Below are positions 1 to 47,874 of a DNA stretch of 64,000 nucleotides, one piece after another. Origin of the DNA: Closterium sp. NIES-65 (lineage: Eukaryota > Streptophyta > Zygnematophyceae > Desmidiales > Closteriaceae). The notes under the pieces were generated by a model that worked only from the letters and a program-made list of their open reading frames with translations, was not told the DNA's origin and searched no databases. The stretch spans positions 328,743 to 392,742 of the forward strand of contig CANXME010002473.1 in assembly GCA_948144175.1 (NCBI GenBank), read 5' to 3'. The translations under genes were made by a program, and so were the position numbers. Position 1 is the stretch's first letter. Every line of letters starts with the position of its first letter.

Positions 1-380
1 TTTGCACACGCTAGGCCCTTGTTCTTGCTATTTTGCACACGCTAGACCCTCGTTCTTGCAATTTTGCAGACGCTATGCTCTCGTTCTTGCTATTTTGTAC
101 ACGCTAGACCCTTGTTCTTGCAATTTTGCAAAAGCTAGGCCCTTTTTCTTGCAATTTTGCACACGCTAGGCCCTTGTTCTTGCTATTTTGCACACGCTAG
201 ACCCTTGTTCTTGCAATTTTGAACACGCTATGCCCTTGTTCTTGCAATTTTTCACACGCTAGGCCCCTGTTCTTGCAATTTTGCACACGCTAGGCCCTTG
301 TTCTTGCAATTTTGCACACGCTAGGCCCTTGTTCTTGCAATTTTGCACACGCTAGACCCTTGTTCTTGCAATTTTGCACA
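1..380. repeat. 31-bp satellite array (window edge)
   Basis: About 12 head-to-tail copies of a 31-bp unit that begins TTTTGCACACGCTAGG and ends CCCTTGTTCTTGCAA. Variants are CTAGGCCC/CTAGACCC/CTATGCCC and GCAATTTTG/GCTATTTTG. The array passes directly into the 17-bp array at about 379-381. No stable open frame or gene is seen. Confidence 0.95.
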
Positions 381-1787
381 AGCTCCTGGACCAGGCAAGC
401 TTGTGGACCAGGCACGCTCCTGGACCAGGCAAGCTCCTAGACGAGGCAAGCTCCTGGACCAGGCAAGCTCCTAATCCAGGCAAACACGTGGACCAAGCAC
501 ACTCCTGGACCAGGCAAGCTCCTGGACCACGCAAGCTCCTGGACCAGGCAAGCTCTTAGACCAGGCACACTCTTGGACCACGCAAGCTCCTGGACCAGGC
601 AAGCTCCTGGACCAGACAAGCTCCTGGACCAGGCAAGCTCCTGGACCAGGCAAGCTCCTGGACCAGGCAAGCTCGTGGACTAGGCAAGCTCCTGGACCAC
701 GCAAGCTCTTGGACGAGGCAAGCTCCTGGACTAGGCAAGCTTCTAAACCAGGCAAACTTGTGGACCAAGCACGCTCCTAGACCAGGCAAGCTCCTTGACC
801 AGGTAAGCTCCTGGACCAGGCAAGCTCCTCGACCATGCAAGCTCCTGGATAACGCAAGCTCTTGGACCGGGCACGCTCCTGGACCAGGCAAGCTCTTGGA
901 CCAAGCAGGCTTCTGGACCAAGCAAGCTATTGGATCACGCAAGCTCCTACACCAGGCAAGCTTCTGGACGAGGCAAACTCCTGGACTAGGCACGCTCAAG
1001 GACCATGCACGCTCCTGGACCGGCAAGCTTCCGGACCAAGCAAACTCTTGGACCAGAAAGCGCCTAGACCAGGCAAGCTCCTGGACCAGGCAAGCTCCTA
1101 GACCAGGCAAGCTCCTGGACCAAGCAAGCTCTTGGACCAGTCAAGCTCTTGGACGAGGCAAGCTCCTGGACCAAGCAAGCTCCTGGACCAGGCAAGCTCC
1201 TGGACAAGGCTAGCTCCGGGACCAGGCAAGCTCCTGGACCAGGCACGCTCATAGACCAGGCAAGATCCTAGACCAGGCAAGCTCTTGGACTAGGCACGCT
1301 CTTGGACCAGGCAAGCTCTTGGACCAGGCAGGCTTCTGGACCAAGCAAGCTCCTGGACCAAACAAGCTCCTGGACTAGGCAAGCTCGTGGACTAGGCACG
1401 CTTTTGGACCCGGCAAGCTCCTGGACCAAGCTCGCTCGTGGAACAGGCACGCTCCAGGATCACGCACGCTCCTGGACAAGGCAAGCTCGTGGACCAGGCA
1501 CGCTCCTGGACCAGGCAAGCTCCTAGACCAGGCAAGCTCCTGGACCAGGCAAGCTCATGGACCAGGCACGCTCCTGGACAAGGCAAGCTCCTGGACCAGG
1601 CAAGCTCCTGGACCAGGCATGCTCGTGGACCACGCAAGCTCTTAGACCAGGCACGCTATTGGACCAGGCAAGCTCTTGGACGAGGCAGGCTTCAGGACCA
1701 ACCTAGCTCATGGACTAGGCAAGCTCGTGGACCAGGCAAGCTTCTGGACCAGGCAAGCTCTTGGACCAGGCACGCTCCTGGACCACG

Positions 1788-4700
1788 CAAGCTCTTGGAC
1801 CGGGCAAGCTCCTTGACCAGACAAGCTCTTGGAACATGCAAGCTTTTGGACCAGGCACGCTCCTGGACCATGCAAGCTCTTGGACCAGGCAAGCTCCTGG
1901 GCCAGGCAAGCTTTTGGACCAGGCAAGATCTTGGACCAGGCAAGCTCCTGGACCAGGCACGCTCCTGGACCAGGCAAGCTCGTGGACCAGGCAAGCTCAT
2001 GGACCAGGCAAGCTCCTGGACCTGGCAAGCTCCTGGACCAGGCAAGCTCCTGGACCAGGCAAGCTCGTGGACCACGCAATCTCTTGGACCAAGCAAGCTC
2101 TTGGACCAGGCAAGCTCCTAGACAAGGCAAGCTCCTGGACCAGGCAAGCTCCTGGACCATGCAAGCTCATGGACCAGGCAAGCTCCTGGACAAGGCAAGC
2201 TCCTTGAACAGGCAAGCTCTTGGACCAGGCACGCTCCTGGACTTGGCAAGCTCCTAGACCAGGCAAGCTCTTGGACTAGGCACGCTCCTAAACCAGGCAA
2301 GCTCATGGACCAGGCAAGCTTCTGGAACAAGCAAGCTCCTGGACCAGGCACACCTCCTGGACCAGGCACCTCCTAGACCAGGCAAGCTCCTGGACGAGGC
2401 AAGCTCCTAGACCAGGCAAGCTCGTGGACCAGGCACGCTCCTGGACCAGGCAAGCTCCTGGACCAGGCACGCTCCTGGACCAGGCACGCTCTCAGACCAG
2501 GCAAGCTCCTGGACGAGGCAAGCTCCTTGACCAGGCAAGCTCTTGGACCAGGCTAGCTCGTGGATGAGGCATGCTCCTGGACGAGGCATGCTCATGGACC
2601 AGGCAAGCTCCTGGACCAGGCAAGCTCCTGGACGAGGCATGCTCCTGGACCAGGCAAGCTCCTGGACCAGGCAAGCTCTTGGACCAGGTGAGCTCCTGGT
2701 CCAGGCAAGCTTCTGGCCCAAGCGAGCTCTTGGACCAGGCACGCTCGTGGACCAGGCAAGCTCTTGGACCAGGCAAGCTCCTGGACCAGGCAAGCTCGTG
2801 GACCAGGCACACTCCTGGACCAGGCAAGCTCCTAGACCAGGCAAGCTCCTAGACCAGGCAAGCTCGTGGACCAGGCAAGCTCGTGGACTAGGCACGCTCC
2901 TGGATCAGGCAAGCTCTTGGACCAGGCAAGCTCGTGGACCAGAGCTCCTGGACCACGCAAGCTCGTGGACTAGGCAAGCTCCTGGACCAGGCAAGCTTCT
3001 GGACGAGGAAAACTTCAGGACCAGGCAAGCTCTTGGACCAGGCACGCTCTTGGACCAAGCAAGATCTTGGACCGGGCAAGCTCCAGGACCAGGCAAGCTC
3101 CTCGAACATGCATTCTCCAGGACCAGGCAAGCTCCTGGACCAGGCAAGCTCTTGGACCAGGATAGCTCCTGGACCACGCAAGATCCTGGACCAGGCACGC
3201 TCCTAGACCATGCAAGCTCCTGGACAAGGCAAGCTCCTGGACCAGGCAAGCCTCCGGACCAGGCAAACTCGTGGACCAGACATGCTCCTGGACCACGCAA
3301 GCTCCTGGACCAGGCAAGCTCCTAGACCAGGCAAGCTCCTGGACCAGGCAAGCTCCTGGACCACGCAAGCACTTGGACTGGGCAAGCTCTTGGACCAGGC
3401 AAGCTCCTGGACCAGGCAAGCTCCTGGAACACGCAAGCTCCTGGACAACGCAAGCTCTTGGACCAGGCACGCTCCTCGACCTGGCAAGCTCTTGGACCAG
3501 GCAGGCTTCTGGACCAAGCAAGCTCTTGGACCAGGCAAGCTCCTGGACCAGGCAAGCTACTGGACTAGGCAAGCTCCTACGACCAGGCACTCTCGTGGAC
3601 CATGCACGCTCCTGGAACAGGCAAGCTCTTGAACCAGGCAGGCTCGTGGACCAGGCAAGCTCCTGGACCAGGCAAGCTCCTGGACCAGGCAAGCTCCTTG
3701 ACCAGGCAAGCTCCTGGACCAGGCAAGCTCCTGAACCAGGCAAGCTCCTGAACGCAAGCTCTTGGACCAGACAAGCTCCTGGACCACGCAAGCTCCTTGA
3801 CAAGGCAAGCTATTGGACTAGGCAAGCTCTTGGACCAGGCAAGCTCCTGGACCTGGCAAGCTCCTGGACCAGGCAAGCTCCTGGACCAGGCAAGCTCCTG
3901 GACCACGCAAGCTCTTGGACCGGGCAAGCTCCTTGACCAGGCAAGCTCTTGGAACATGCAAGCTTTTGGACCAGGCACGCTCCTGGACCATGCAAGCTCT
4001 TGGACCAGGCAAGCTCCTGGGCCAAGCAAGCTCCTGGACCAGGCAAGATCTTGGACCAGGCAAGCTCCTGGACCAGGCACGCTCCTGGACCAGGCAAGCT
4101 CGTGGACCAGGCAAGCTCATGGACCAGGCAAGCTCCTGGACCTGGCAAGCTCCTGGACCAGGCAAGCTCCTGGACCAGGCAAGCTCGTGGACCACGCAAT
4201 CTCTTGGACCAAGCAAGCTCTTGGACCAGGCAAGCTCCTAGACAAGGCAAGCTCCTGGACCAGGCAAGCTCCTGGACCATGCAAGCTCATGGACCAGGCA
4301 AGCTCCTGGACAAGGCAAGCTCCTTGAACAGGCAAGCTCTTGGACCAGGCACGCTCCTGGACTTGGCAAGCTCCTAGACCAGGCAAGCTCTTGGACTAGG
4401 CACGCTCCTAAACCAGGCAAGCTCTTGGACCAGGCAAGCTTCTGGAACAAGCAAGCTCCTGGACCAGGCACACCTCCTGGACCAGGCACCTCCTAGACCA
4501 GGCAAGCTCCTGGACGAGGCAAGCTCCTAGACCAGGCAAGCTCGTGGACCAGGCACGCTCCTGGACCAGGCAAGCTCCTGGACCAGGCACGCTCCTGGAC
4601 CAGGCACGTTCTCAGACCAGGCAAGCTCCTGGACGAGGCAAGCTCCTTGACCAGGCAAGCTCTTGGACCAGGCTAGCTCGTGGATGAGGCATGCTCCTGG

Positions 4701-5563
4701 ACGAGGCATGCTCCTGGACCAGGCAAGCTCCTGGACCAGGCAAGCTCCTGGACGAGGCATGCTCCTGGACTAGGCAAGCTCCTGGACCAGGCAAGCTCTT
4801 GGACCAGGTAAGCTCCTGGACCAGGCAAGCTTCTGGCCCAAGCGAGCTCTTGGACCAGGCACGCTCGTGGACCAGGCAAGCTCTTGGACCAGGCAAGCTC
4901 CTGGACCAGGCAAGCTCGTGGACCAGGCACGCTCCAGGACCAGGCAAGCTCCTAGACCAGGCAAGCTCCTAGACCAGGCAAGCTCGTGGACCAGGCAAGC
5001 TCGTGGACTAGGCACGCTCCTGGATCAGGCAAGCTCTTGGACCAGGCAAGCTCGTGGACCAGAGCTCCTGGACCACGCAAGCTCGTGGACTAGGCAAGCT
5101 CCTGGACCAGGCAAGCTTCTGGACGAGGAAAAGTTCAGGACCAGGCAAGCTCTTGGACCAGGCACGCTCGTGGACCAAGCAAGATCTTGGACCGGGCAAG
5201 CTCCAGGACCAGGCAAGCTCCTCGAACATGCATTCTCCAGGACCAGGCAAGCTCCTGGACCAGGCAAGCTCTTGGACCAGGATAGCTCCTGGACCACGCA
5301 AGATCCTGGACCAGGCACGCTCCTAGACCATGCAAGCTCCTGGACAAGGCAAGCTCCTGGACCAGGCAGGCCTCCGGACCAGGCAAACTCGTGGACCAGA
5401 CATGCTCCTGGACCACGCAAGCTCCTGGACCAGGCAAGCTCCTAGACAAGGCAAGCTCCTGGACCAGGCAAGCTCCTGGACCACGCAAGCACTTGGACTG
5501 GGCAAGCTCTTGGACCAGGCAAGCTCCTGGACCAGGCAAGCTCCTGGAACACGCAAGCTCCTT
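1788..5563. repeat. Internal duplication, offset 2120 bp
   Basis: The variant pattern of 17-bp units at about 1788-3443 recurs at about 3908-5563 with a constant 2120-bp offset and few mismatches. The intervening segment is only partly shared; a motif near 3786 recurs near 5556 with a different offset, so the block is mosaic. The same pair exists in mirror form at about 40126-43901, so the duplication predates the palindrome. Confidence 0.85.
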
Positions 5564-6239
5564 GACAAGGCAAGCTATTGGACTAGGCAAGCTCTTGGAC
5601 CAGGCAAGCTTCTGCACCAAGCAAGCTTTTGGACCAGGCAAGCTCCTGGACCAGGCAAGCTCCTGGACCACGCAAGCTCCTCGACCAGGCACGCTTGTGG
5701 ACCAAGCACGCTCCTGGACCAGGCAAGCCCTTGGACCAGGCAGGCTCGTAGACCAGGCAAGCTCGTAGACCAGGCAAGCTCCTGGACCAGGCAAGCTTCC
5801 GGACCAGGCAAGCTCCTGGACTACGTAAGCTCCGGGACCAGGCAAGCTCCTGGACCAGGCTCGCTCGTCGACCAGGCACACTCCTAGTCCAGGCACGCTC
5901 TTGGACCAGGCAAGCTCGTGGATCAGGCATGCTCCGGGACTAGGCAAGCTCCTAGACCAAGCAAACTCCTGGACCAGGCAAGCTCTTGCACCAGGAAAGC
6001 TCCTAGACCAGGCAAGCTCCTGGACGAGGCAAGCTAACGGACCAAGAAAGCTCTTGGACAAGGCAAGCTCCAGGACCAGGCACGCTCGTGGAACAAGCAA
6101 GCTCCTGGACCAGGCAAGCTCCTGGACCAGGATAGCTCCTAGACCAGGCAAGCTCCTGGATCAGGCAAGCTCCTGGACCATGCAAGCTGCTAGACTAGGC
6201 AAGCTCCTAGACCAGGCAAGCTTCTGGACCAGGCAAACT

Positions 6240-9200
6240 CGTGGATCAGGCACGCTCCTGGACCAGGCAAGCTCCTGGACCAGGCAAGCTCCTAGACCAG
6301 GCAAGCTCCTTGACCAGGCAAGCTCCTGGACCACGTAAGCTCTTGGACCAGGCAAGCTCTTGGACCATGCAAAGCTCCTGGACCAGGCAAGCTCTTGGAC
6401 CAGGCAAGCTCCTGGACCACGCAAGCTCCTGGACCACGCAAGCTCTTGGACCAGGCACGCTCGTGGACCTGGCAAGCTCTTGGACCTCTGGACCAAGCAA
6501 GCTATTGGACCACGCAAGCTCCTGGACCATGCAAGCTGTTGGACCAGGCAAGCTACTGGACCAGGCAAGCTCTTGGACCAGGAAATCTCCTGGACTAAGC
6601 AAGCTCCTGTACCAGGCAAGCTAACGGACCAAGAAAGCTCCTAGACAAGGCAAGCTCCTGGACCAGGAATGCTCGTGGAAGAGGCAAGCTCCTGGACCAG
6701 GCAAGCTCCTGGACCAGGCAAGCTTCTGGACCAGGCAAACTCCTGGACCTGGCACGCTCCTGGACGAGGCAAGCTCGTGGACCAGGCAAGCTCCTAGACC
6801 AGGCAAGCTCCTGGACCAGGCACGCTCCTGGACCACGCAAGCTCTTGGACCAGGCAAGCTCTTGGTCCAGGCAAGCTCCTGGACCAGGCAAGCTCCTGGA
6901 CCAGGCAAGCTCCTCGACCACGCAAGCTCCTGGATCATGCAAGCTCTTGGAACAGGCACACTCCTAGACCAGGCAAGCTCTTGGACCAGGCAGGCTTCTA
7001 GACCAAGCAAGCTATTGGACCACGCAAGCTCCTGGACCAGGCAAACTCCTGGACCAGGCACGCTCGTGGACCGTGCACGCTCCTGGACGAGGCAAGCTCT
7101 TGGACCAGGCAGTCTCGTGGACCAGGCAAGCTCCTGGACCAGGCAAGCTCCCGGACCAGGCAAGCTCCTTGACCAGGCAAGCTCCTGGACCAGGCAAGCT
7201 CCTGGACCAGGCACGCTCGTGGACCATGCACGCTCTTGGACTAGGCAAGCTCTTGGACCAGGCACGCTCCTAGAACAGGCAAGCTCTTGGACCAGGCAAT
7301 CTCCTGGACCAGGCAAGCTCCTGGACCAGGATAGCTCATAGACCAGGCAAGCTCTTGGACCAGGCACGCTCCTGGACCATGCAAGCTCTTAGACTAGGCA
7401 AGCTCCTGGACCAGGCAAGCTTCTGGACCAGGCAAACTCGTGGACCAGGCACGAACCTGGACCAGACAAGCTCCTGGACCAGGCAAGCTCCTAGACCAGA
7501 CAAGCTCCTGAACCATGCAAGCTCCTGGACCAGGCAAGCTCCTTGACGGGGCAAGCTCCTTGACTAGGCAAGCTCCTGGACCAGGCAAGTTCATGGACCA
7601 GGCACGCTCGTGGACCATGCACGCTCTTGGACCAGGCAAGCTCTTGGACCAGGCACGCTCCTCGAACAGGCAAGCTCCTGGACCAGGCAAGCTCCTGGAC
7701 CAGGATAGCTCCTGGACCAAGCAAGCACCTGGACCAGGCACGCTACTGGACCATGCAAGCTCCTAGACCAGGCAAGCTTCTGGACCAGGCAAACTCGTAG
7801 ACTAGGCACGCTCCAGGACCAGGCAAGCTCCTGGACCAGGCAAGCTCCTAGACCAGGCAAGCTCCTTGACCAGGCAAGCTCCTGGACCACGTAAGCTCTT
7901 GGACCAGGCAAGCTCTTGGACCATGCAAAGCTCCTGGACCAGGCAAGCTCTTGGACCAGGCAAGCTCCTGGACCACGCAAGCTCCTGGACCACGCAAGCT
8001 CTTGGACCAGGCACGCTCGTGGACCTGGCAAGCTCTTGGACCTCTGGACCAAGCAAGCTATTGGACCACGCAAGCTCCTGGACCAGGCAAGCTGTTGGAC
8101 CAGGCAAGCTACTGGACCAGGCAAGCTCTTGGACCAGGAAATCTCCTGGACTAAGCAAGCTCCTGTACCAGGCAAGCTAACGGACCAAGAAAGCTCCTAG
8201 ACAAGGCAAGCTCCTGGACCAGGAATGCTCGTGGAAGAGGCAAGCTCCTGGACCAGGCAAGCTCCTGGACCAGGCAAGCTCCTGGACCAGGCAAGCTTCT
8301 GGACCAGGCAAACTCCTGGACCTGGCACGCTCCTGGACGAGGCAAGCTCGTGGACCAGGCAAGCTCCTAGACCAGGCAAGCTCCTGGACCAGGCACGCTC
8401 CTGGACCACGCAAGCTCTTGGACCAGGCAAGCTCTTGGTCCAGGCAAGCTCCTGGACCAGGCAAGCTCCTGGACCAGGCAAGCTCCTCGACCACGCAAGC
8501 TCCTGGATCATGCAAGCTCTTGGAACAGGCACACTCCTAGACCAGGCAAGCTCTTGGACCAGGCAGGCTTCTGGACCAAGCAAGCTATTGGACCACGCAA
8601 GCTCCTGGACCAGGCAAACTCCTGGACCAGGCACGCTCGTGGACCGTGCACGCTCCTGGACGAGGCAAGCTCTTGGACCAGGCAGTCTCGTGGACCAGGC
8701 AAGCTCCTGGACCAGGCAAGCTCCCGGACCAGGCAAGCTCCTTGACCAGGCAAGCTCCTGGACCAGGCAAGCTCCTGGACCAGGCACGCTCGTGGACCAT
8801 GCACGCTCTTGGACTAGGCAAGCTCTTGGACCAGGCACGCTCCTAGAACAGGCAAGCTCTTGGACCAGGCAATCTCCTGGACCAGGCAAGCTCCTGGACC
8901 AGGATAGCTCATAGACCAGGCAAGCTCTTGGACCAGGCACGCTCCTGGACCATGCAAGCTCTTAGACTAGGCAAGCTCCTGGACCAGGCAAGCTTCTGGA
9001 CCAGGCAAACTCGTGGACCAGGCACGAACCTGGACCAGACAAGCTCCTGGACCAGGCAAGCTCCTAGACCAGAGAAGCTCCTGAACCATGAAAGCTCCTG
9101 GACCAGGCAAGCTCCTTGACGGGGCAAGCTCCTTGACTAGGCAAGCTCCTGGACCAGGCAAGTTCATGGACCAGGCACGCTCGTGGACCATGCACGCTCT

Positions 9201-9380
9201 TGGACTAGGCAAGCTCTTGGACCAGGCACGCTCCTCGAACAGGCAAGCTCCTGGACCAGGCAAGCTCCTGGACCAGGATAGCTCCTGGACCAAGCAAGCA
9301 CCTGGACCAGGCACGCTCCTGGACCATGCAAGCTCCTAGACCAGGCAAGCTTCTGGACCAGGCAAACTCGTAGACTAGGC
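6240..9380. repeat. Higher-order 1573-bp tandem duplication, two units
   Basis: Two consecutive blocks of about 1.57 kb share the same ordered series of variant 17-bp units (for example 7012-7248 and 8585-8821, offset 1573). At the left edge the offset is 1556, one 17-bp unit less. The mirror region of the right arm holds three such blocks. Confidence 0.88.
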
Positions 9381-9812
9381 ACGCTCCAGGACCAGGCAAG
9401 CTCCTAGACCAGGCAAGCTCCTAGACCAGGCAAGCTCGTGGACCACCCAAGCTCTTGGACCAGGCAAGATCCTAGACCAGGCAAGCTCCTGGACCAGGCA
9501 AGCTCCTAGACCAGGCAAGCTCTTGGACCAGGCAAGCTCCTGGACCACGCAAGCTCTTGGACCAGGCAAGCTCTTGGACCAGGCAAGCTCCTGGACCTCG
9601 CAAGCTCCTGGACCAGGCAAGCTCACGGACCAAGAAAGCTCCTGGACAAGGCAAGCTCCTGGACCAGGCACGCTCGTGGAAAAGGCAAGCTCCTGAACCA
9701 GGCACGCTCCTCGACCGGGCAAGCTCTTGGACCAGGCGAGCTCCTAGACCAGGCAAGCTCCTGGACCTCGCAAGCTCTTGGACAGGGCAAGCTCTTGGAC
9801 GAGGCAAGCTCC

Positions 9813-12800: not shown

Positions 12801-13407
12801 ACGTGGTCGTGGACGTGGACGTGGACGTGGACGTGGACGTGGACATGGACGTGGACGTGGACGTGGACGTGGACATGGACATGGATGTGGACATGGACGT
12901 GGATGTGGTCGTGGTCGTAGACGTGGACGTGGACGTGGACGTGGACGTGGAGGACGTGGATGTGGAGGACGTGGACGTGGACGTGGAGGACGTGGACGTG
13001 GACGTGGACGTGGACGTGGTCGTGGACGTGGAGGTTGACGTGGACGTGGACGTGGTCGTGGACGTGGAGGACTTGGACGTGGACATGGATGTGGACGTGG
13101 ACGTGGACGTGGACGTGGACATGGTCGTGGACGTGGACGTGGACGTGGACGTGGACGTGGACGTGGACATGGACGTGGACGTGGACGTGGACGTGGACGT
13201 GGACGTGGACGTGAACGTGGACGTGGACATGGTCGTGGACGTGGACGTGAACGTGGCAAAGACGTGGACATGGACGTGGACGTGAACGTGGACGTGGACG
13301 TGGACATGGACGTGGACGTACATGTGCACGTGGAAGTGGACATGGTCGTGGACGTGGACGTGAACGTGGACGTGGACGTGGACATGGTCGTGGACGTGGA
13401 CCTGGAC
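9813..13407. repeat. Hexamer (GTGGAC)n array, 3.6 kb
   Basis: About 600 hexamers of consensus GTGGAC with variants ATGGAC, TTGGAC, GTGAAC, GTGGTC, GTAGAC and GAGGAC. Long ordered series of variants give higher-order structure. The flanking 17-bp units meet the array at the shared string TGGAC on both sides (CTCCTGGACATGGACGTAG on the left, CCTGGACAGGAGCG on the right). The hexamer has no stop codon, so frames of up to 1267 codons are open on either strand; these are not genes. Confidence 0.95.
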
Positions 13408-15335: not shown

Positions 15336-15629
15336 TGCGGAGATAACTACTACAACGGGAGCTAGACTACTGGCTAGGCACGTGTGCTCGTGTGATCTCT
15401 GCGTTCGTTGGTCCTTAGACGTTTTCCTAGTGCTAACACTGCTTGCTAGTTCACGGGGCAATTTGGCAAGAGTTTCACTAAGAAAAGATCACAACAATGG
15501 TACAATGAAGTTGGCAATGCAAGACTACATCAGAGCTAGCATTCAGGTTGGTCAACTGCCAGCACAGCATGGTCGACCGCATTCCAACACGACTTGGTCG
15601 ACCGCGCTCCAGCAGAGCAAAGTCGACAG
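15336..15629 (-). repeat. 3' LTR of Copia copy 1
   Basis: Partner of the LTR at 21747-22040. Its outer edge abuts the 17-bp array (GAGCTTGC then TGCGGAGA on the + strand). Inward, 15630-15647 is the reverse complement of the 18 bp that also precede the 5' LTR of copy 2. Confidence 0.9.
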
Positions 15630-20137: not shown

Positions 20138-20140
20138 CGC

Positions 20141-28408: not shown

Positions 28409-28516
28409 TGGTGTGTGTGTGCTGTGCAGGTGATGAGGCTCGGCATACCAATCATCTGCACGCACCTGCAAAGCGGGTGCACTGCTGGCACACCGTCGAC
28501 CTGAAGCATTGGCAAG

Positions 28517-33700: not shown

Positions 33701-34303
33701 GTCCATGTCCATGTCCACGTCCACGTCCACGTCCATGTTCATGTCCACGTCCACGTCCACGTCCAAGTCCACGTCCAAGTCCTCCACGTCCATGTCCACG
33801 TCCACGTCCACGTCCACGTCCACGTCCATGTCCACGTCTACGTTCACGTCCACGTCCACGTCCGTGTCCACGTCCATGTCCACGTCCACGTCCACGTCCA
33901 CGTCCACGTCCACGTCCATGTCCACGTCCATGTCCACGTCCACGTCCACGTCCACGTCCATGTCCACGTCCATGTCCACGTCCACGTCCACCTCCACGTC
34001 CACGTCCACGTCCACGTCCATGTCCACGTCCATGTCCAAGTCCATGTCCACGTCCATGTCCACGTCCATGTCCAAGTCCATGTCCACGTCCAAGTCCACG
34101 TCCATGTCCAAGTCCATGTCCACGTCCAAGTCCTCCACGTCCACGTCCACGTCCATGTCCACATCCACGTCCATGTCCACGTCCACGTTCACATCAATCC
34201 ACATCCAAATCCTCCACGTCCAAGTCTTCCACGTCCACGTCCACGTCCATGTCCATGTCCACGTCCACGTCCAGGTCCACGTCCACGTCTACGTCCATGT
34301 CCA
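30739..34303. repeat. Hexamer array, right arm
   Basis: Reverse complement of 9813-13407 (GTCCAC/ACGTCC reading), 3565 bp. It is 30 bp shorter overall than the left-arm array. One visible difference is a missing 30-bp block near 32630-32700, where two rather than three repeats of a CCACGACCACGTCCACGACC-type unit remain. Confidence 0.95.
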
Positions 34304-34739
34304 GGAGCTTGCCTCGTCCAAGAGCTTGCCCTGTCCAAGAGCTTGCGAGGTCCAGGAGCTTGCCTGGTCTAGGAGCTCGCCTGGTCCAAGAGCTTGCCTG
34401 GTCGAGGAGCGTGCCTGGTTCAGGAGCTTGCCTTTTCCACGAGCGTGCCTGGTCCAGGAGCTTGCCTTGTCCAGGAGCTTTCTTGGTCCGTGAGCTTGCC
34501 TGGTCCAGGAGCTTGCGAGGTCCAGGAGCTTGCCTGGTCCAAGAGCTTGCCTGGTCCAAGAGCTTGCGTGGTCCAGGAGCTTGCCTGGTCCAAGAGCTTG
34601 CCTGGTCTAGGAGCTTGCCTGGTCCAGGAGCTTGCCTGGTCTAGGATCTTGCCTGGTCCAAGAGCTTGGGTGGTCCACGAGCTTGCCTGGTCTAGGAGCT
34701 TGCCTGGTCTAGGAGCTTGCCTGGTCCTGGAGCGTGCCT

Positions 34740-37700: not shown

Positions 37701-39450
37701 CCAGGAGCTTGCGTGGTCCAGGAGCTTGCCTGGTCCAAGAGCTTGCCTGGTCCAGGAGCTTTGCATGGTCCAAGAGCTTGCCTGGTCCAAGAGCTTACGT
37801 GGTCCAGGAGCTTGCCTGGTCAAGGAGCTTGCCTGGTCTAGGAGCTTGCCTGGTCCAGGAGCTTGCCTGGTCCTGGAGCGTGCCTAGTCTACGAGTTTGC
37901 CTGGTCCAGAAGCTTGCCTGGTCTAGGAGCTTGCATGGTCCAGTAGCGTGCCTGGTCCAGGTGCTTGCTTGGTCCAGGAGCTATCCTGGTCCAGGAGCTT
38001 GCCTGGTCCAGGAGCTTGCCTGTTCGAGGAGCGTGCCTGGTCCAAGAGCTTGCCTGGTCCAAGAGCGTGCATGGTCCACGAGCGTGCCTGGTCCATGAAC
38101 TTGCCTGGTCCAGGAGCTTGCCTAGTCAAGGAGCTTGCCCCGTCAAGGAGCTTGCCTGGTCCAGGAGCTTGCATGGTTCAGGAGCTTGTCTGGTCTAGGA
38201 GCTTGCCTGGTCCAGGAGCTTGTCTGGTCCAGGTTCGTGCCTGGTCCACGAGTTTGCCTGGTCCAGAAGCTTGCCTGGTCCAGGAGCTTGCCTAGTCTAA
38301 GAGCTTGCATGGTCCAGGAGCGTGCCTGGTCCAAGAGCTTGCCTGGTCTATGAGCTATCCTGGTCCAGGAGCTTGCCTAGTCCAGGAGATTGCCTGGTCC
38401 AAGAGCTTGCCTGTTCTAGGAGCGTGCCTGGTCCAAGAGCTTGCCTAGTCCAAGAGCGTGCATGGTCCACGAGCGTGCCTGGTCCAGGAGCTTGCCTGGT
38501 CCAGGAGCTTGCCTGGTCAAGGAGCTTGCCTGGTCCGGGAGCTTGCCTGGTCCAGGAGCTTGCCTGGTCCACGAGACTGCCTGGTCCAAGAGCTTGCCTC
38601 GTCCAGGAGCGTGCACGGTCCACGAGCGTGCCTGGTCCAGGAGTTTGCCTGGTCCAGGAGCTTGCGTGGTCCAATAGCTTGCTTGGTCCAGAAGCCTGCC
38701 TGGTCCAAGAGCTTGCCTGGTCTAGGAGTGTGCCTGTTCCAAGAGCTTGCATGATCCAGGAGCTTGCGTGGTCGAGGAGCTTGCCTGGTCCAGGAGCTTG
38801 CCTGGTCCAGGAGCTTGCCTGGACCAAGAGCTTGCCTGGTCCAAGAGCTTGCGTGGTCCAGGAGCGTGCCTGGTCCAGGAGCTTGCCTGGTCTAGGAGCT
38901 TGCCTGGTCCACGAGCTTGCCTCGTCCAGGAGCGTGCCAGGTCCAGGAGTTTGCCTGGTCCAGAAGCTTGCCTGGTCCAGGAGCTTGCCTGGTCCAGGAG
39001 CTTGCCTCTTCCACGAGCATTCCTGGTCCAGGAGCTTGCCTTGTCTAGGAGCTTTCTTGGTCCGTTAGCTTGCCTGGTACAGGAGCTTGCTTAGTCCAGG
39101 AGATTTCCTGGTCCAAGAGCTTGCCTGGTCCAGTAGCTTGCCTGGTCCAACAGCTTGCCTGGTCCAGGAGCTTGCGTGGTCCAATAGCTTGCTTGGTCCA
39201 GAGGTCCAAGAGCTTGCCAGGTCCACGAGCGTGCCTGGTCCAAGAGCTTGCGTGGTCCAGGAGCTTGCGTGGTCCAGGAGCTTGCCTGGTCCAAGAGCTT
39301 GCCTGGTCCAGGAGCTTTGCATGGTCCAAGAGCTTGCCTGGTCCAAGAGCTTACGTGGTCCAGGAGCTTGCCTGGTCAAGGAGCTTGCCTGGTCTAGGAG
39401 CTTGCCTGGTCCAGGAGCTTGCCTGGTCCAGGAGCGTGCCTGATCCACGA
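34740..39450. repeat. Three tandem 1573-bp higher-order units
   Basis: The same ordered series of variant 17-bp units starts near 34802, 36375 and 37948 (offset exactly 1573 each time). The last repeat has a 1556-bp offset at its distal edge (37514 to 39070). The left arm has only two units, so copy number changed after the arms became inverted copies. Confidence 0.88.
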
Positions 39451-40125
39451 GTTTGCCTGGTCCAGAAGCTTGCCTGGTCTAGGAGCTTGCCTAGTCTAGC
39501 AGCTTGCATGGTCCAGGAGCTTGCCTGATCCAGGAGCTTGCCTGGTCTAGGAGCTATCCTGGTCCAGGAGCTTGCCTGGTCCAGGAGCTTGCTTGTTCCA
39601 CGAGCGTGCCTGGTCCTGGAGCTTGCCTTGTCCAAGAGCTTTCTTGGTCCGTTAGCTTGCCTCGTCCAGGAGCTTGCCTGGTCTAGGAGCTTTCCTGGTG
39701 CAAGAGCTTGCCTGGTCCAGGAGTTTGCTTGGTCTAGGAGCTTGCCTAGTCCCGGAGCATGCCTGATCCACGAGCTTGCCTGGTCCAAGAGCGTGCCTGG
39801 ACTAGGAGTGTGCCTGGTCGACGAGCGAGCCTGGTCCAGGAGCTTGCCTGGTCCCGGAGCTTACGTAGTCCAGGAGCTTGCCTGGTCCGGAAGCTTGCCT
39901 GGTCCAGGAGCTTGCCTGGTCTACGAGCTTGCCTGGTCTACGAGCCTGCCTGGTCCAAGGGCTTGCCTGGTCCAGGAGCGTGCTTGGTCCACAAGCGTGC
40001 CTGGTCGAGGAGCTTGCGTGGTCCAGGAGCTTGCCTGGTCCAGGAGCTTGCCTGGTCCAAAAGCTTGCTTGGTGCAGAAGCTTGCCTGGTCCAAGAGCTT
40101 GCCTAGTCCAATAGCTTGCCTTGTC

Positions 40126-43100
40126 AAGGAGCTTGCGTGTTCCAGGAGCTTGCCTGGTCCAGGAGTTTGCCTGGTCCAAGAGCTTGCCCAGTCCAAGTGC
40201 TTGCGTGGTCCAGGAGCTTGCCTGGTCCAGGAGCTTGCCTTGTCTAGGAGCTTGCCTGGTCCAGGAGCTTGCGTGGTCCAGGAGCATGTCTGGTCCACGA
40301 GTTTGCCTGGTCCGGAGGCCTGCCTGGTCCAGGAGCTTGCCTTGTCCAGGAGCTTGCATGGTCTAGGAGCGTGCCTGGTCCAGGATCTTGCGTGGTCCAG
40401 GAGCTATCCTGGTCCAAGAGCTTGCCTGGTCCAGGAGCTTGCCTGGTCCTGGAGAATGCATGTTCGAGGAGCTTGCCTGGTCCTGGAGCTTGCCCGGTCC
40501 AAGATCTTGCTTGGTCCACGAGCGTGCCTGGTCCAAGAGCTTGCCTGGTCCTGAACTTTTCCTCGTCCAGAAGCTTGCCTGGTCCAGGAGCTTGCCTAGT
40601 CCACGAGCTTGCGTGGTCCAGGAGCTCTGGTCCACGAGCTTGCCTGGTCCAAGAGCTTGCCTGATCCAGGAGCGTGCCTAGTCCACGAGCTTGCCTGGTC
40701 CACGAGCTTGCCTGGTCTAGGAGCTTGCCTGGTCTAGGAGCTTGCCTGGTCCTGGAGCGTGCCTGGTCCACGAGCTTGCCTGGTCCAGGAGCTTGCCTGG
40801 TCCAAGAGCTTGCCTGGTCCACGAGCGTGCCTGGTCCAAGAGCTCGCTTGGGCCAGAAGCTTGCCTGGTCCAGGAGCTTACCTGGTCCAAGAGCTTGCCT
40901 GGTCCAGGAGCTTGCCTAGTCCAGGAGCATGCCTCGTCCAGGAGCTTGCCTGGTCCAGGAGCTTGCCTGGTCCAGGAGCATGCCTCGTCCAGGAGCATGC
41001 CTGATCCACGAGCTAGCCTGGTCCAAGAGCTTGCCTGGTCAAGGAGCTTGCCTCGTCCAGGAGCTTGCCTGGTCTGAGAACGTGCCTGGTCCAGGAGCGT
41101 GCCTGGTCCAGGAGCTTGCCTGGTCCAGGAGCGTGCCTGGTCCACGAGCTTGCCTGGTCTAGGAGCTTGCCTCGTCCAGGAGCTTGCCTGGTCTAGGAGG
41201 TGCCTGGTCCAGGAGGTGTGCCTGGTCCAGGAGCTTGCTTGTTCCAGAAGCTTGCCTGGTCCAAGAGCTTGCCTGGTTTAGGAGCGTGCCTAGTCCAAGA
41301 GCTTGCCTGGTCTAGGAGCTTGCCAAGTCCAGGAGCGTGCCTGGTCCAAGAGCTTGCCTGTTCAAGGAGCTTGCCTTGTCCAGGAGCTTGCCTGGTCCAT
41401 GAGCTTGCATGGTCCAGGAGCTTGCCTGGTCCAGGAGCTTGCCTTGTCTAGGAGCTTGCCTGGTCCAAGAGCTTGCTTGGTCCAAGAGATTACGTGGTCC
41501 ACGAGCTTGCCTGGTCCAGGAGCTTGCCTGGTCCAGGAGCTTGCCAGGTCCAGGAGCTTGCCTGGTCCATGAGCTTGCCTGGTCCACGAGCTTGCCTGGT
41601 CCAGGAGCGTGCCTGGTCCAGGAGCTTGCCTGGTCCAAGATCTTGCCTGGTCCAGGAGCTTGCTTGGCCCAGGAGCTTGCCTGGTCCAAGAGCTTGCATG
41701 GTCCAGGAGCGTGCCTGGTCCAAAAGCTTGCATGTTCCAAGAGCTTGCCTGGTCAAGGAGCTTGCCCGGTCCAAGAGCTTGCGTGGTCCAGGAGCTTGCC
41801 TGGTCCAGGAGCTTGCCTGGTCCAGGAGCTTGCCAGGTCCAGGAGCTTGCCTGGTCCAAGAGCTTGCCTAGTCCAATAGCTTGCCTTGTCAAGGAGCTTG
41901 CGTGGTCCAGGAGCTTGTCTGGTCCAAGAGCTTGCGTTCAGGAGCTTGCCTGGTTCAGGAGCTTGCCTGGTCCAGGAGCTTGCCTGGTCAAGGAGCTTGC
42001 CTGGTCCAGGAGCTTGCCTGGTCCAGGAGCTTGCCTGGTCCACGAGCCTGCCTGGTTCAAGAGCTTGCCTGTTCCAGGAGCGTGCATGGTCCACGAGAGT
42101 GCCTGGTCGTAGGAGCTTGCCTAGTCCAGGAGCTTGCCTGGTCCAGGAGCTTGCCTGGTCCAAGAGCTTGCTTGGTCCAGAAGCCTGCCTGGTCCAAGAG
42201 CTTGCTAGGTCGAGGAGCGTGCCTGGTCCAAGAGCTTGCGTTGTCCAGGAGCTTGCGTGTTCCAGGAGCTTGCCTGGTCCAGGAGCTTGCCTGGTCCAAG
42301 AGCTTGCCCAGTCCAAGTGCTTGCGTGGTCCAGGAGCTTGCCTGGTCCAGGAGCTTGCCTGGTCTAGGAGCTTGCCTGGTCCAGGAGCTTGCGTGGTCCA
42401 GGAGCATGTCTGGTCCACGAGTTTGCCTGGTCCGGAGGCTTGCCTGGTCCAGGAGCTTGCCTTGTCCAGGAGCTTGCATGGTCTAGGAGCGTGCCTGGTC
42501 CAGGATCTTGCGTGGTCCAGGAGCTATCCTGGTCCAAGAGCTTGCCTGGTCCAGGAGCTTGCCTGGTCCTGGAGAATGCATGTTCGAGGAGCTTGCCTGG
42601 TCCTGGAGCTTGCCCGGTCCAAGATCTTGCTTGGTCCAAGAGCGTGCCTGGTCCAAGAGCTTGCCTGGTCCTGAAGTTTTCCTCGTCCAGAAGCTTGCCT
42701 GGTCCAGGAGCTTGCCTAGTCCACGAGCTTGCGTGGTCCAGGAGCTCTGGTCCACGAGCTTGCCTGGTCCAAGAGCTTGCCTGATCCAGGAGCGTGCCTA
42801 GTCCACGAGCTTGCCTGGTCCACGAGCTTGCCTGGTCTAGGAGCTTGCCTGGTCTAGGAGCTTGCCTGGTCCAGGAGTGTGCCTGGTCCACGAGCTTGCC
42901 TGGTCCAGGAGCTTGCCTGGTCCAAGAGCTTGCCTGGTCCACGAGCGTGCCTGGTCCAAGAGCTCGCTTGGGCCAGAAGCTTGCCTGGACCAGGAGCTCA
43001 CCTGGTCCAAGAGCTTGCCTGGTCCAGGAGCTTGCCTGGTCCAGGAGCATGCCTCGTCCAGGAGCTTGCCTGGTCCAGGAGCTTGCCTGGTCCATGAGCA

Positions 43101-43901
43101 TGCCTCGTCCAGGAGCATGCCTCATCCACGAGCTAGCCTGGTCCAAGAGCTTGCCTGGTCAAGGAGCTTGCCTCGTCCAGGAGCTTGCCTGGTCTGAGAG
43201 CGTGCCTGGTCCAGGAGCGTGCCTGGTCCAGGAGCTTGCCTGGTCCAGGAGCGTGCCTGGTCCACGAGCTTGCCTGGTCTAGGAGCTTGCCTCGTCCAGG
43301 AGCTTGCCTGGTCTAGGAGGTGCCTGGTCCAGGAGGTGTGCCTGGTCCAGGAGCTTGCTTGTTCCAGAAGCTTGCCTGGTCCAAGAGCTTGCCTGGTTTA
43401 GGAGCGTGCCTAGTCCAAGAGCTTGCCTGGTCTAGGAGCTTGCCAAGTCCAGGAGCGTGCCTGGTCCAAGAGCTTGCCTGTTCAAGGAGCTTGCCTTGTC
43501 CAGGAGCTTGCCTGGTCCATGAGCTTGCATGGTCCAGGAGCTTGCCTGGTCCAGGAGCTTGCCTTGTCTAGGAGCTTGCCTGGTCCAAGAGCTTGCTTGG
43601 TCCAAGAGATTGCGTGGTCCACGAGCTTGCCTGGTCCAGGAGCTTGCCTGGTCCAGGAGCTTGCCAGGTCCAGGAGCTTGCCTGGTCCATGAGCTTGCCT
43701 GGTCCACGAGCTTGCCTGGTCCAGGAGCGTGCCTGGTCCAGGAGCTTGCCTGGTCCAAGATCTTGCCTGGTCCAAAAGCTTGCCTGGCCCAGGAGCTTGC
43801 CTGGTCCAAGAGCTTGCATGGTCCAGGAGCGTGCCTGGTCCAAAAGCTTGCATGTTCCAAGAGCTTGTCTGGTCAAGGAGCTTGCCCGGTCCAAGAGCTT
43901 G
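40126..43901. repeat. Mirror of the 2120-bp-offset duplication
   Basis: Variant patterns at 41303-41572 and 43423-43692, among others, recur at a 2120-bp offset, as in the left arm at 1788-5563. Boundaries are estimated from the mirror coordinates. Confidence 0.8.
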
Positions 43902-45310
43902 CGTGGTCCAGGAGCGTGCCTGGTCCAAGAGCTTGCCTGGTCCAGAAGCTTGCCTGGTCCACGAGCTTGCCTAGTCCATGAGCTAGGTTGGTCCTGAAGC
44001 CTGCCTCGTCCAAGAGCTTGCCTGGTCCAATAGCGTGCCTGGTCTAAGAGCTTGCGTGGTCCACGAGCATGCCTGGTCCAGGAGCTTGCCTGGTCCAGGA
44101 GCTTGCCTTGTCCAGGAGCGTGCCTGGTCCATGAGCTTGCCTGGTCCAGGAGCTTGCCTGGTCTAGGAGCTTGCCTGGTCCAGGAGCGTGCCTGGTCCAC
44201 GAGCTTGCCTTGTCCAGGAGCGTGCGTGATCCTGGAGCGTGCCTGTTCCACGAGCGAGCTTGGTCCAGGAGCTTGCCGGGTCCAAAAGCGTGCCTAGTCC
44301 ACGAGCTTGCCTAGTCCAGGAGCTTGTTTGGTCCAGGAGCTTGCTTGGTCCAGAAGCCTGCCTGGTCCAAGAGCTTGCCTGGTCCAAGAGCGTGCCTAGT
44401 CCAAGAGCTTGCCTGGTCTAGGATCTTGCCTGGTCTATGAGCGTGCCTGGTCCAGGAGCTTGCCTGGTCCCGGAGCTAGCCTTGTCCAGGAGCTTGCCTG
44501 GTCCAGGAGCTTGCTTGGTCCAGGAGCTTGCCTCGTCCAAGAGCTTGACTGGTCCAAGAGCTTGCTTGGTCCAGGAGCTTGCCTGGTCTAGGAGCTTGCC
44601 TGGTCCAGGAGCTTGCCTGGTCTAGGCGCTTTCTGGTCCAAGAGTTTGCTTGGTCCGGAAGCTTGCCGGTCCAGGAGCGTGCATGGTCCATGAGCGTGCC
44701 TAGTCCAGGAGTTTGCCTCGTCTCGAAGCTTGCCTGGTGTAGGAGCTTGCGTGATCCAATAGCTTGCTTGGTCCAGAAGCCTGCTTGGTCCAAGAGCTTG
44801 CCTGGTCCAGGAGCGTGCCCGGTCCAAGAGCTTGCGTTATCCAGGAGCTTGCATGGTCGAGGAGCTTGCCTGGTCCAGGAGCTTACCTGGTCAAGGAGCT
44901 TGCCTGGTCTAGGAGCGTGCTTGGTCCACAAGTTTGCCTGGTTTAGAAGCTTGCCTAGTCCAGGAGCTTGCCTCGTCCAAGAGCTTGCGTGGTCCAGGAG
45001 CTTGCCTAGTCCACGAGCTTGCCTGGTCCAGGAGCTTGCCTGGTCCAGGAGCTTGCCTGGTCCAGGAGCTTGTCTGGTCCAGGAGCTTGCCTGGTCCAGG
45101 AGCTTGCGTGGTCCAAGAGTGTGCCTGGTCTAAGAGCTTGCCTGGTCCAGGAGCTTGCGTGGTCCAGGAGCTTGCCTGGTCCAGGAGTGTGCTTGGTCCA
45201 CGTGTTTGCCTGGATTAGGAGCTTGCCTGGTCCAGGAGCTTGCCTCGTCTAGGAGCTTGCCTGGTCCAGGAGCGTGCCTGGTCCACAAGCTTGCCTGGTC
45301 CAGGAGCTTG

Positions 45311-47874
45311 TGCAAAATTGCAAGAACAAGGGTCTAGCGTGTGCAAAATTGCAAGAACAAGGGCCTAGCGTGTGCAAAATTGCAAGAACAAGGGCCTAGC
45401 GTGTGCAAAATTGCAAGAACAGGGGCCTAGCGTGTGAAAAATTGCAAGAACAAGGGCATAGCGTGTTCAAAATTGCAAGAACAAGGGTCTAGCGTGTGCA
45501 AAATAGCAAGAACAAGGGCCTAGCGTGTGCAAAATTGCAAGAACAAGGGCCTAGCTTTTGCAAAATTGCAAGAACAAGGGTCTAGCGTGTACAAAATAGC
45601 AAGAACGAGAGCATAGCGTCTGCAAAATTGCAAGAACGAGGGTCTAGCGTGTGCAAAATAGCAAGAACAAGGGCCTAGCGTGTGCAAAATTGCAAGAACA
45701 AGGGCCTAGCGTGTGCAAAATTGCAAGAACAAGGGCCTAGCGTGTGCAAAATTGCTAGAACAAGGGTCTAGCGTGTGCAAAATAGCAAGAACAAGGGTCT
45801 AGCGTGTGCAAAATTGCAAGAACAAGGGTCTAGCGTGTGCAAAATAGCAAGAACAAGGGCCTAGCGTGTGCAAAATTGCAAGAACAAGGGCCTAGCGTGT
45901 GCAAAATTGCAAGAACAAGGGTCTAGCATGTGCAAAATAGCAAGAGCAAGGGCATAGCGTATGCAAAATTGCAAGAACAAGGGTCTAGCGTGTGCAAAAT
46001 AGCAAGAACAAAGGCCTAGCGTGTGCAAAATTGCAAGAACAAGGGCCTAGCGTGTGCAAAATTGCAAGAACAAGGGCATAGCGTGTGCAAAATTGCAAGA
46101 ACAAGGGCCTAGCGTGTGCGAAATTGCAAGAACAAGGGCATAGCGTGTGCAAAAAAGCAAGAACAAGGGCATAGCGTGTGCAAAATTGCAAGAGCAAGGG
46201 TCTAGCGTGTGCAAAATTGCAAGAACAAGGGCATAGCGTGTGCAAACTTGCAAGAACTAGGGCCTAGCGTGTGCAAAATTGCAAGAACAAGGGCCTAGCG
46301 TGTGCAAAATTGCAAGAACAAGGGTCTAGCGTGTGCAAAATTGCAAGAACAAGGGTCTAGCGTGTGCAAAATTGCAAGAACAAGGGCCTAGCGTGTGCAA
46401 AATAGCAAGAACAAGGGCCTAGCGTGTGCAAAATTGCAAGAACAAGGGCCTAGCGTGTGCAAAATTGCAAGAACAGGGGCCTAGCGTGTGCAAAATTGCA
46501 AGAACAAGGGCATAGCGTGTGCAAAATTGCAAGAACAAGGGTCTAGCGTGTGCAAAATAGCAAGAGCAAGGGCCTAGCGTGTGCAAAATTGCAAGAACAA
46601 GGGCCTAGCTTTTGCAAAATTGCAAGAACAAGGGTCTAGCGTGTACAAAATAGCAAGAACGAGGGCATAGCGTCTGCAAAATTGCAAGAACGAGGGTCTA
46701 GCGTGTGCAAAATTGCAAGAACAAGGGGTTAGCGTGTGCAAAATAGCAAGAACAAGGGTCTAGCGTGTGCAAAATTACAAGAACAAGGGCCTAGCGTGTG
46801 CAAAATTGCAAGAACAAGGGGTTAGCGTGTGCAAAATTGCAGGAACAAGGGCCTAGCGTGTGCAAAATTGCTAGAACAAGGGTCTAGCGTGTGCAAAATA
46901 GCAAGAACAAGGGTCTAGCGTGTGCAAAATTACAAGAACAAGGGTCTAGCGTTTGCAAAATAGCAAGAACAAGGGCCTAGCGTGTCCAAAATTGCAAGAA
47001 CAAGGGCCTAGCGTGTGCAAAATTGCAAGAACAAGGGTCTAGCGTGTGCAAAATAGCAAGAGCAAGGGCATAGCGTATGCAAAATTGCAAGAACAAGGGT
47101 CTACCGTGTGCAAAATAGCAAGAACAAAGGCCTAGCGTGTGCAAAATTGCAAGAACAAGGGCCTAGCGTGTGCAAAATTGCAAGAACAATTGCCAAGCGT
47201 GTGCAACATTGCAAACACAAGGGCCTTGCGTGAGCGAAATTGCAAGAACAAGGGTCTAGCATGTGCAATATAGCAAGAACAAGGGCATAGCATGTGCAAA
47301 ATTGCAAGAACAAGGGTCTAGCGTATGCAAAATGGCAAGAACAAGGGCCTAGTGTGTGCCAAATTGCAAGAACAAGGGTCTAGCGTGTGCAAAATAGCAA
47401 GAACAAGGGCCTAGCGTGTGCCAAATTGCAAGAACAATGGTCTAGCGTGTGCAAAATAGCAAGAACAAGGGCCTAGCGTGTGCAAAATTGCAAGAACAAT
47501 GGTCTAGCGTGTGCAAAATAGTAAGAACAAGGGCATAGCGTGTGCAAAATTTCAAGAACAAGGGTCTAGCGTGTGCAAAATAGCAAGAACAAGGGCCTAG
47601 CGTATGCAAAATAGCAAGAACAAGGGCATAGCGTGTGCAAAATTGCAAGAACAAGGGTCTAGCGTGTGCAAAATTGCAAGAACAAGGGCCTAGCGTGTGC
47701 AAAATTGCAAGAACAAGGGTCTAGCGTGTGCAAAATAGCAAGAACAAGGGCCAAGCGTGTGCAAAACTGCAAGAACAAGGGCCTAGCGTGTGCAAAATTG
47801 CAAGAACAAGGGCCTAGCGTGTGCAAAATTGCAAGAACAAGGGCCTAGCGTGTGCAAAATTGCAAGAACAAGGG
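45311..47874. repeat. 31-bp satellite array, reverse polarity
   Basis: About 83 copies of the 31-bp unit seen at 1-380, reverse-complemented (GCAAGAACAAGGGCCTAGCG within each unit). Only the first 380 bp or so are covered by the visible left palindrome arm. Internal blocks recur (for example the CTTTTGCAAAATTGC variant near 45552 and 46611), indicating secondary duplication. No gene is present. Confidence 0.95.

What the first reader, a model, noticed from the sequence alone, without database searches (positions are those of the whole stretch)
1..45688. A near-perfect palindrome of more than 44 kb with a 65-bp spacer
Retrotransposon, 17-bp, hexamer and 31-bp arrays mirror each other around 22,073 with nearly constant coordinate sums. 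Such structures arise by fusion of broken sister chromatids (breakage-fusion-bridge) or intrastrand fold-back. They are hard to maintain because they can extrude as cruciforms. The arms differ by array indels, SNPs and a 1573-bp unit, which argues against a simple read copied onto itself. A fold-back sequencing or assembly artefact is still the main alternative.
Basis: partly seen in the sequence, partly recalled or inferred. Interest (0 to 1): 0.8.

Follow-up and report, generated by a model that had tools for sequence, protein, structure and literature searches.

The report
Mirror-image chromosome-end duplication with telomere scar
In DNA whose retrotransposon best matches the green alga Closterium, a segment of about 22,000 bases stands next to its own mirror image, with a scrap of telomere sequence at the joint and a third copy that carries the same joint, so damaged chromosome ends were likely copied and fused more than once.

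Summary
The palindrome is in the sequence. Arms A (1-22041) and B (22105-45688) mirror each other around 22073: 19 substitutions in 22,004 aligned bases and four indels (6, 30, 6, 1573 bp; none of one base). It runs off the window start. The 'spacer' is about 28 bp of 17-mer satellite plus a 15-bp plant-type telomere tract that abuts the exact TG end of arm B's copia LTR; arm A's LTR is cut short. A third copy, C (49736-64000), begins with at least 95 bases identical to that joint, including 14 bp of arm B's LTR, then meets a 31-mer array capped by a second telomere tract (49226-49256). The repeated joint, the arm differences and the lack of adapter argue against a simple fold-back read, but no reads or genome could be checked. 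Best reading: serial terminal duplication and fusion at eroded chromosome ends, as in telomerase-deficient nematodes or breakage-fusion-bridge cycles, in likely subtelomeric satellite DNA of a Closterium alga. Order of events and molecular pathway are inferred. New member of a known kind.

The parts
1..22041 (-). Arm A, reading from the centre outward on the minus strand: copia element, inner 17-mer array, hexamer array, outer 17-mer array, 31-mer array
   Evidence: Mirror of arm B, 19 of 22,004 substitutions; continues past the window start
22105..45688 (+). Arm B, same order of parts outward; carries one more 1573-bp unit in its outer 17-mer array
   Evidence: the 1573-bp unit 35043-36615 is an exact tandem copy of the next 1573 bases
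22042..22104 (.). Unpaired centre of the palindrome
   Evidence: Sequence; first paired differing column at A 22042 / B 22104
22048..22075 (.). About 28 bp of 17-mer satellite joined to arm A's truncated LTR (about the first 8 bp of the LTR are missing; LTR position 14 is C instead of A; 17-bp hairpin AGCGTGCCTGGCACGCT at the joint, found in the window only here and in copy C)
22076..22090 (+). Interstitial telomere tract CCTAAACCCTAAACC (TTTAGGG type), oriented as the cap of arm B
   Evidence: mean 0.00 in 100 shuffles
22091..22399 (+). Arm B 5' LTR, intact TG...CA, 309 bp; its first base abuts the telomere tract
22476..24005 (+). copia gag reading frame (stop to stop), ending at TAG
   Evidence: Pfam Retrotran_gag_2 27.7 bits against cut-off 27
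24006..27656 (+). copia pol reading frame (integrase, reverse transcriptase)
   Evidence: Pfam RVT_2 E 1.4e-53, rve, Pol_BBD, SH3_retrovirus; top hit is from Closterium sp. NIES-64, 1168 of 1216 identical
28502..28810 (+). Arm B 3' LTR, 2 of 309 differences from the 5' LTR; identical to the 3' LTRs of A (15336-15644) and C (56196-56504)
28811..30739 (+). Inner 17-mer array of arm B (mirror 13407-15335)
30739..34303 (+). Hexamer array of arm B (mirror 9813-13407)
34299..45310 (+). Outer 17-mer array of arm B (mirror 379-9817)
45305..47874 (+). 31-mer array at the outer end of arm B (mirror 1-384, cut by the window)
47872..49226 (+). 16-mer array GGGTTGAACACACGGT
49226..49256 (+). Second interstitial telomere tract, four CCCTAAA plus CCC, oriented as the cap of the segment to its right
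49254..49739 (+). 31-mer array between the second telomere tract and copy C; 91-92% to B's array in each of the 8 best registers listed and at most 90.5% to A's, so no preferred register
49736..49830 (+). Copy of the palindrome joint in C: 14 bp of arm B's LTR end (inverted), telomere tract, 17-mer piece, arm A's truncated LTR; at least 95 bases identical to 22104-22010 (run limited by the slice compared)
49736..64000 (+). Copy C of the unit, same orientation as arm B, cut by the window end
   Evidence: 11 of 14,195 substitutions against A, 11 of 14,165 against B, plus unit-sized indels in the hexamer array

Best explanation
A unit of about 22 kb (copia retrotransposon plus satellite arrays), likely subtelomeric, stands as an inverted pair and a third copy, with a short telomere tract at the palindrome centre and another before the third copy, and this was likely built by successive copying and fusion of chromosome ends whose telomeres had worn down. 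Shown: the arms, the telomere tracts, the exact LTR terminus on the arm B side, the truncated LTR on the arm A side, and the reuse of that joint in C. Inferred steps: (1) an end capped by a short telomere directly on a copia LTR (arm B) was joined to a telomere-less copy of the same end (arm A), giving the palindrome, either by fold-back or template-switched synthesis or by joining of sister ends; (2) a copy of the joint broke about 14 bp inside arm B's LTR and gained a 31-mer array plus telomere through a 4-bp shared TTGC, giving C; (3) that capped end was in turn joined to the 16-mer array at the outer end of arm B.
For: Telomere motif at the palindrome centre and at the 49.2-kb join (mean 0.00 in 100 shuffles), each oriented as the cap of the segment on its right. 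Arm B's LTR is intact to its first base, with LTR position 14 = A as in all three 3' LTRs, whereas A and C have C there, so B does not look like a mere copy of A's modified end. C carries at least 95 identical bases of the joint, 14 of them B's inverted LTR end, so an inverted LTR-telomere joint likely existed before A and C were separated. The copies have the same 3' flank and identical 3' LTRs, so they likely derive from one copia insertion. Arm differences are spread over the satellites and all four indels are whole array units. Precedents: synthesis copies subtelomeric segments onto uncapped telomeres, in about 5% of cases starting at interstitial telomere tracts, in telomerase-deficient C. 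elegans (review PMC9071541, passages seen); telomere loss induces palindromes in yeast (PMC4981268, abstract and start of introduction, Discussion). The top protein hit is from Closterium sp. NIES-64, in a species complex with more than 2-fold genome size variation and about 30% of genes varying in copy number between strains that can mate (PMC10407611, abstract); desmids are described as holocentric (PMC3897674, passages), which would let fusions survive.
Against: No read, coverage or genome evidence could be obtained. C shares only the first 14 bp of arm B, so it supports the inverted LTR end at the joint, not the whole of arm B. If C had simply been copied from A after the palindrome formed, A-C should differ less than A-B, but over the shared span A-B differ at 7 sites of 14,219 and A-C at 11 of 14,195; arm-to-arm conversion, a C-first order or chance could explain this. 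The 15-bp tract could be repair filler; the same review notes that interstitial telomere tracts in Caenorhabditis are unlikely to come from head-to-head telomere fusions. That the unit is subtelomeric rests on the telomere tracts alone. Kawaguchi et al. [quoted passage not shown] The copia bodies and the 1573-bp unit are so identical that polishing or misassembly could have levelled them.
Confidence: 0.55

Rival explanations
1. A fold-back read or misassembly: the true genome holds C-type units only, and a chimeric molecule or a false join made the palindrome, its arms then being extended by different real copies.
For: If the source is one of the long-read assemblies of this species complex, these are PacBio Sequel/Canu or Nanopore/Platanus-allee assemblies (PMC10407611, section read). 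Fold-backs make up about 0.55-0.6% of ONT genomic reads and can recur at one place; some carry sequence between the two halves (PMC12870357, Results read). A 5-bp inverted pair, TGCCA at 22043-22047 and TGGCA at 22099-22103 (sequence), could prime a snap-back. C shares only 14 bp of arm B. The copia bodies are identical.
Against: The centre holds 63 bp of satellite and telomere sequence with no SMRTbell adapter (score 5 against shuffled mean 6.8; adapter letters recalled). Arms differ by 19 substitutions and four unit-sized indels with no single-base indel. The joint recurs in C. A proofreading fill-in from A's end would be expected to give C, not A, at LTR position 14 (inference; extension of a mismatched primer would still give A). 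The same paper saw virtually no fold-backs in its PacBio HiFi data, but it examined only three PacBio samples and, in the section read, no raw-subread genomic data.
Confidence: 0.2
2. A pre-existing pair of inverted copia elements, unrelated to telomere wear, suffered a break and fold-back repair; the telomere tract is filler added by telomerase at the break.
For: An exact LTR end at the joint suggests an integration or cDNA end; inverted repeats are found between the arms of yeast palindromes (PMC4981268). A review lists work on telomerase-RNA retrotranscription at mammalian breaks (PMC6410037, for this point only its reference entry seen).
Against: A and B share the same 3' flank (GCAAGCTCCT), so B looks like a copy of A's insertion and not an independent insertion, unless recombination later replaced its far side. 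A second telomere tract marks the next join too.
Confidence: 0.15
3. Classical breakage-fusion-bridge: simple end joining of two sister chromatids, anaphase breakage near the fusion point, then capping of the broken end (copy C).
For: Palindrome, breakage point 14 bp from the LTR end in C, and recapping with satellite and telomere are the expected sequence of events.
Against: Does not by itself explain satellite filler and truncated LTR on one side only. In yeast without telomeres and in telomerase-deficient C. elegans, palindromes or duplications at lost telomeres were attributed to DNA synthesis rather than simple joining; whether that holds for algae is unknown. It is a sub-case of the best explanation rather than its opposite.
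Confidence: 0.1

Closest known systems
Terminal duplications sealing end-to-end chromosome fusions in telomerase-deficient C. elegans (Lowden et al. 2011; title seen in the reference list of PMC9071541; paper itself not held)
   Same: Subtelomeric segment copied at a fusion point, in a minority of cases (about 5%) starting at an interstitial telomere tract, in a holocentric organism
   Different: Here in a natural, likely algal sequence, with a 22-kb unit dominated by satellites and a copia element, and three copies in view; telomerase status and chromosome position unknown
Yeast telomere-loss palindromes (short-inverted-repeat-induced synthesis, PMC4981268)
   Same: Long inverted duplication close to a lost telomere, short inverted sequences between the arms
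   Different: Yeast palindromes arise in cells without telomere maintenance; here a telomere tract remains in the joint
Template for ALT (TALT) of C. elegans, suggested also for wild strains (PMC9071541)
   Same: A segment near interstitial telomere tracts is multiplied
   Different: Spread to many or all chromosome ends not shown here
Breakage-fusion-bridge palindromes
   Same: Inverted duplication, reuse of the joint after breakage
   Different: No centromere, bridge or copy-number evidence
Ty1/copia retrotransposons of Closterium
   Same: gag, pol domains, 309-bp TG...CA LTRs
   Different: In-frame TAG between gag and pol in all three copies; it is a passenger in the duplicated unit

Membership tests
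Long inverted duplication (palindrome) | Two adjacent arms, reverse complementary at high identity, short spacer | tested here: met
   19 of 22,004 substitutions, 63-bp spacer
Terminal duplication at a telomere fusion (C. elegans type) | Telomere repeats at or near the join (a subset of the C. elegans cases, per the review) | tested here: met
   22076-22090 and 49226-49256
Terminal duplication at a telomere fusion (C. elegans type) | Duplicated segment comes from a chromosome end | tested here: inconclusive
   31-mer array meets CCCTAAA at 49254-49257; no chromosome-scale genome could be searched
Terminal duplication at a telomere fusion (C. elegans type) | Arises when telomeres are uncapped | not testable with these tools
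   Needs cells
TALT | The bounded segment is present at many or all chromosome ends | not tested
   The genome search 'own' did not complete
Breakage-fusion-bridge | Dicentric bridge and asymmetric copy gain | not testable with these tools
   No copy-number or cytological data
Sequencing fold-back artefact | Arms from one molecule, hence identical | tested here: not met
   19 substitutions and four unit-sized indels between arms; a chimeric read extended by other copies is not excluded
Sequencing fold-back artefact | Adapter remnant, or little sequence, at the centre | tested here: inconclusive
   63 bp of satellite and telomere, no adapter match; but some artefact reads do carry sequence between the halves
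Ty1/copia retrotransposon | Integrase before RVT_2 reverse transcriptase, gag, LTR pair TG...CA | tested here: met

The most novel reading that the evidence does not exclude
Chromosome ends of this Closterium are rebuilt in nature by a TALT-like process: a 22-27-kb retrotransposon-satellite cassette bounded by telomere scraps is copied onto worn ends and the ends then fuse, again and again, which would supply part of the chromosome-number turnover of the species complex.
Probability: 0.15. Interest if true: 0.85.

Novelty: new member of a known kind. Interest (0 to 1): 0.5.

Why it matters
The sequenced examples of palindromes and duplications at lost telomeres that I met here come from telomerase mutants or cells without telomere maintenance (PMC4981268, PMC9071541), with tumours mentioned as well. 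A natural, nested example in a lineage sister to land plants, in a complex known for large genome-size variation, would give a concrete molecular trail of how its chromosomes fuse and grow, testable by reads or PCR across three short joints.

Tried and rejected
Considered and rejected: missed-adapter PacBio read (no adapter match at the centre); structural RNA or rRNA in the window (Rfam, 0 matches at gathering threshold); an older in-register palindrome around the hexamer array (inner against outer 17-mer array 85.2% in the best-scoring register, against 83.4-86.3% for other registers of the outer array with itself once the three higher-order registers at 100, 99.1 and 94.9% are set aside); C's 31-mer array as a copy of A's or B's (91-92% to B in all 8 registers listed, at most 90.5% to A). 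My first three-way MAFFT alignment misaligned the hexamer arrays and gave 33 A-B differing columns there; the anchored alignments replace it (5 substitutions). A 1-bp gap in the hexamer alignment was an off-by-one of my own segment border and is gone. Literature: searches. Among the rows listed (15 of 53 papers, 10 of 12, 3 of 3) no title or abstract start concerned Closterium telomeres or palindromes, and the main text of PMC10407611 holds 'telomer' and 'palindrom' 0 times; this is not proof that nothing is in print.
Full report
What was checked. The window was compared with itself on both strands, tandem arrays were mapped, and the three copies of the large unit were aligned piece by piece between fixed anchors. 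Arm A (1-22041, minus strand outward) and arm B (22105-45688, plus strand outward) contain, from the centre: a Ty1/copia element, a 17-mer array of 1.9 kb, a hexamer array of 3.6 kb, a 17-mer array of 9.4 kb (A) or 11.0 kb (B), and a 31-mer array. They differ by 0 of 6705, 1 of 1925, 5 of 3558, 12 of 9438 and 1 of 378 substitutions, 19 of 22,004 in all, and by four indels of 6, 30, 6 and 1573 bp. None of the four indels is a single base; three are multiples of the hexamer and the fourth is an exact extra copy of a 1573-bp higher-order unit (0 of 1573 differences to its neighbour). The 31-mers at the window start mirror the first 384 bases of B's 31-mers in register (99.74% against 97.1% for the next register), so the palindrome runs out of the window.

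The centre. Reading the plus strand: arm A's copia LTR, lacking about its first 8 bp and with C instead of A at LTR position 14; about 28 bp of 17-mer satellite; CCTAAACCCTAAACC; then TGAAGC, the exact first bases of arm B's intact 309-bp LTR. The telomere motif is of the TTTAGGG type (recalled as the usual plant and green algal type). With up to one mismatch it is found in the window at three places only: here, in the tract at 49226-49256, and in copy C's repeat of this joint (49750-49764); the mean in 100 shuffles is 0.00. Its orientation at the centre is that of a cap on arm B. A 17-bp hairpin, AGCGTGCCTGGCACGCT, sits between satellite and A's LTR and is found only there and in C; it may record a templated correction of a near-palindrome, which is speculation.

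The third copy. C (49736-64000) lies in the orientation of arm B. Over the shared span it has 11 of 14,195 substitutions from A and 11 of 14,165 from B, against 7 of 14,219 for A-B; in the hexamer array it also differs by indels of 6, 36 and 24 bp from A and of 6, 30, 36 and 24 bp from B, and it lacks B's extra 1573-bp unit, as A does. It starts with the palindrome joint itself: TTGCCAATGCTTCA, which is the inverted LTR end of arm B (exact at 5 places in the window, four of them LTR ends), then the telomere tract, satellite piece and truncated LTR, at least 95 bases identical to the centre (the run was limited by the slice compared). To its left stand a 31-mer array, then (CCCTAAA)4CCC at 49226-49256, then a 16-mer array that follows arm B's 31-mers. 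So there are two joins in the window where a short telomere tract, in the orientation of a cap for the right-hand segment, is fused to something on its left.

What it is. The pol frame matches a protein of Closterium sp. NIES-64 at 1168 of 1216 residues, and all 120 homologues listed, out of 2343 found, are named Closterium. The strain is not known. The published assemblies of this complex that I read about are PacBio or Nanopore based (PMC10407611: abstract, sections 7, 11, 19 and 25 and passages); whether the window comes from one of them I cannot say.

Artefact or real. A missed adapter would leave adapter sequence; none is found. A single folded molecule would give arms without these differences. 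A C-type molecule folded back at the 5-bp TGCCA/TGGCA pair with a proofreading fill-in would be expected to carry C at LTR position 14 of arm B, but B has A, like all three 3' LTRs; extension of a mismatched primer could still give A. The joint recurs in C, although C vouches only for the first 14 bp of arm B. Against this: fold-back artefacts make up 0.55-0.6% of ONT genomic reads, can recur at one place and sometimes hold sequence between the halves; the paper saw virtually none in PacBio HiFi but examined only three PacBio samples (PMC12870357, Results read). What remains is a rare chimera extended by two different real copies, or levelling by the assembler; I give artefact explanations 0.2.

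How it may have formed (inferred). Telomere tracts at both joins, a joint reused after breakage 14 bp into the LTR, and recapping with satellite plus telomere suggest repeated loss, copying and fusion of chromosome ends. In telomerase-deficient C. [quoted passage not shown] about 5% of uncapped telomeres start synthesis at interstitial telomere tracts, and the resulting duplications lie at fusion points; two tracts with the DNA between them can also be copied to all telomeres (TALT), and wild strains are thought to show this (review PMC9071541, passages only). The same review says that interstitial tracts in Caenorhabditis are unlikely to come from head-to-head telomere fusions, so such tracts are not by themselves proof of fusion. 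In yeast without telomeres, palindromes arise by a proposed synthesis from short inverted repeats (PMC4981268, abstract and start of introduction, Discussion). Desmids are described as holocentric (PMC3897674, a Micrasterias paper, passages), so fused chromosomes could survive; this was not shown for Closterium here. The C. psl. complex has more than 2-fold genome size variation, and its authors cite chromosome-number differences within one mating group; they also report that repeat proportion does not explain genome size and that duplicated genes are spread genome-wide, so this structure need not bear on genome size.

Limits. The order palindrome-then-C is favoured by B's intact LTR but not by the A-B/A-C distances, which lean slightly the other way (7 against 11); with so few differences neither is decisive. 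Subtelomeric location rests on telomere tracts alone.

Noticed in passing
24003-24005 (and the matching sites in A and C): gag and pol of the copia element are separated by one in-frame TAG in all three copies, where the NIES-64 relative P0001 has a glutamine; either a shared mutation or stop-codon readthrough as known for some retroelements (recalled).
   Followed up: partly
28811-45310: The two 17-mer arrays of each arm run in opposite orientations on either side of the hexamer array, without detectable in-register homology.
   Followed up: partly
35043-38188: A 1573-bp higher-order unit of the 17-mer array is present in an extra, exactly identical tandem copy (0 of 1573 differences) in arm B only.
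   Followed up: yes
47872-49226: 16-mer array GGGTTGAACACACGGT meets B's 31-mer array at a shared GGG, as the telomere tract does at the other 31-mer array; its GGGTTGA looks like a degenerate telomere repeat.
   Followed up: no
22039-22055 and 49785-49801: Perfect 8-bp hairpin with a 1-base loop at the satellite-LTR joint, with an A-to-C change that completes it, as expected of near-palindrome correction.
   Followed up: partly
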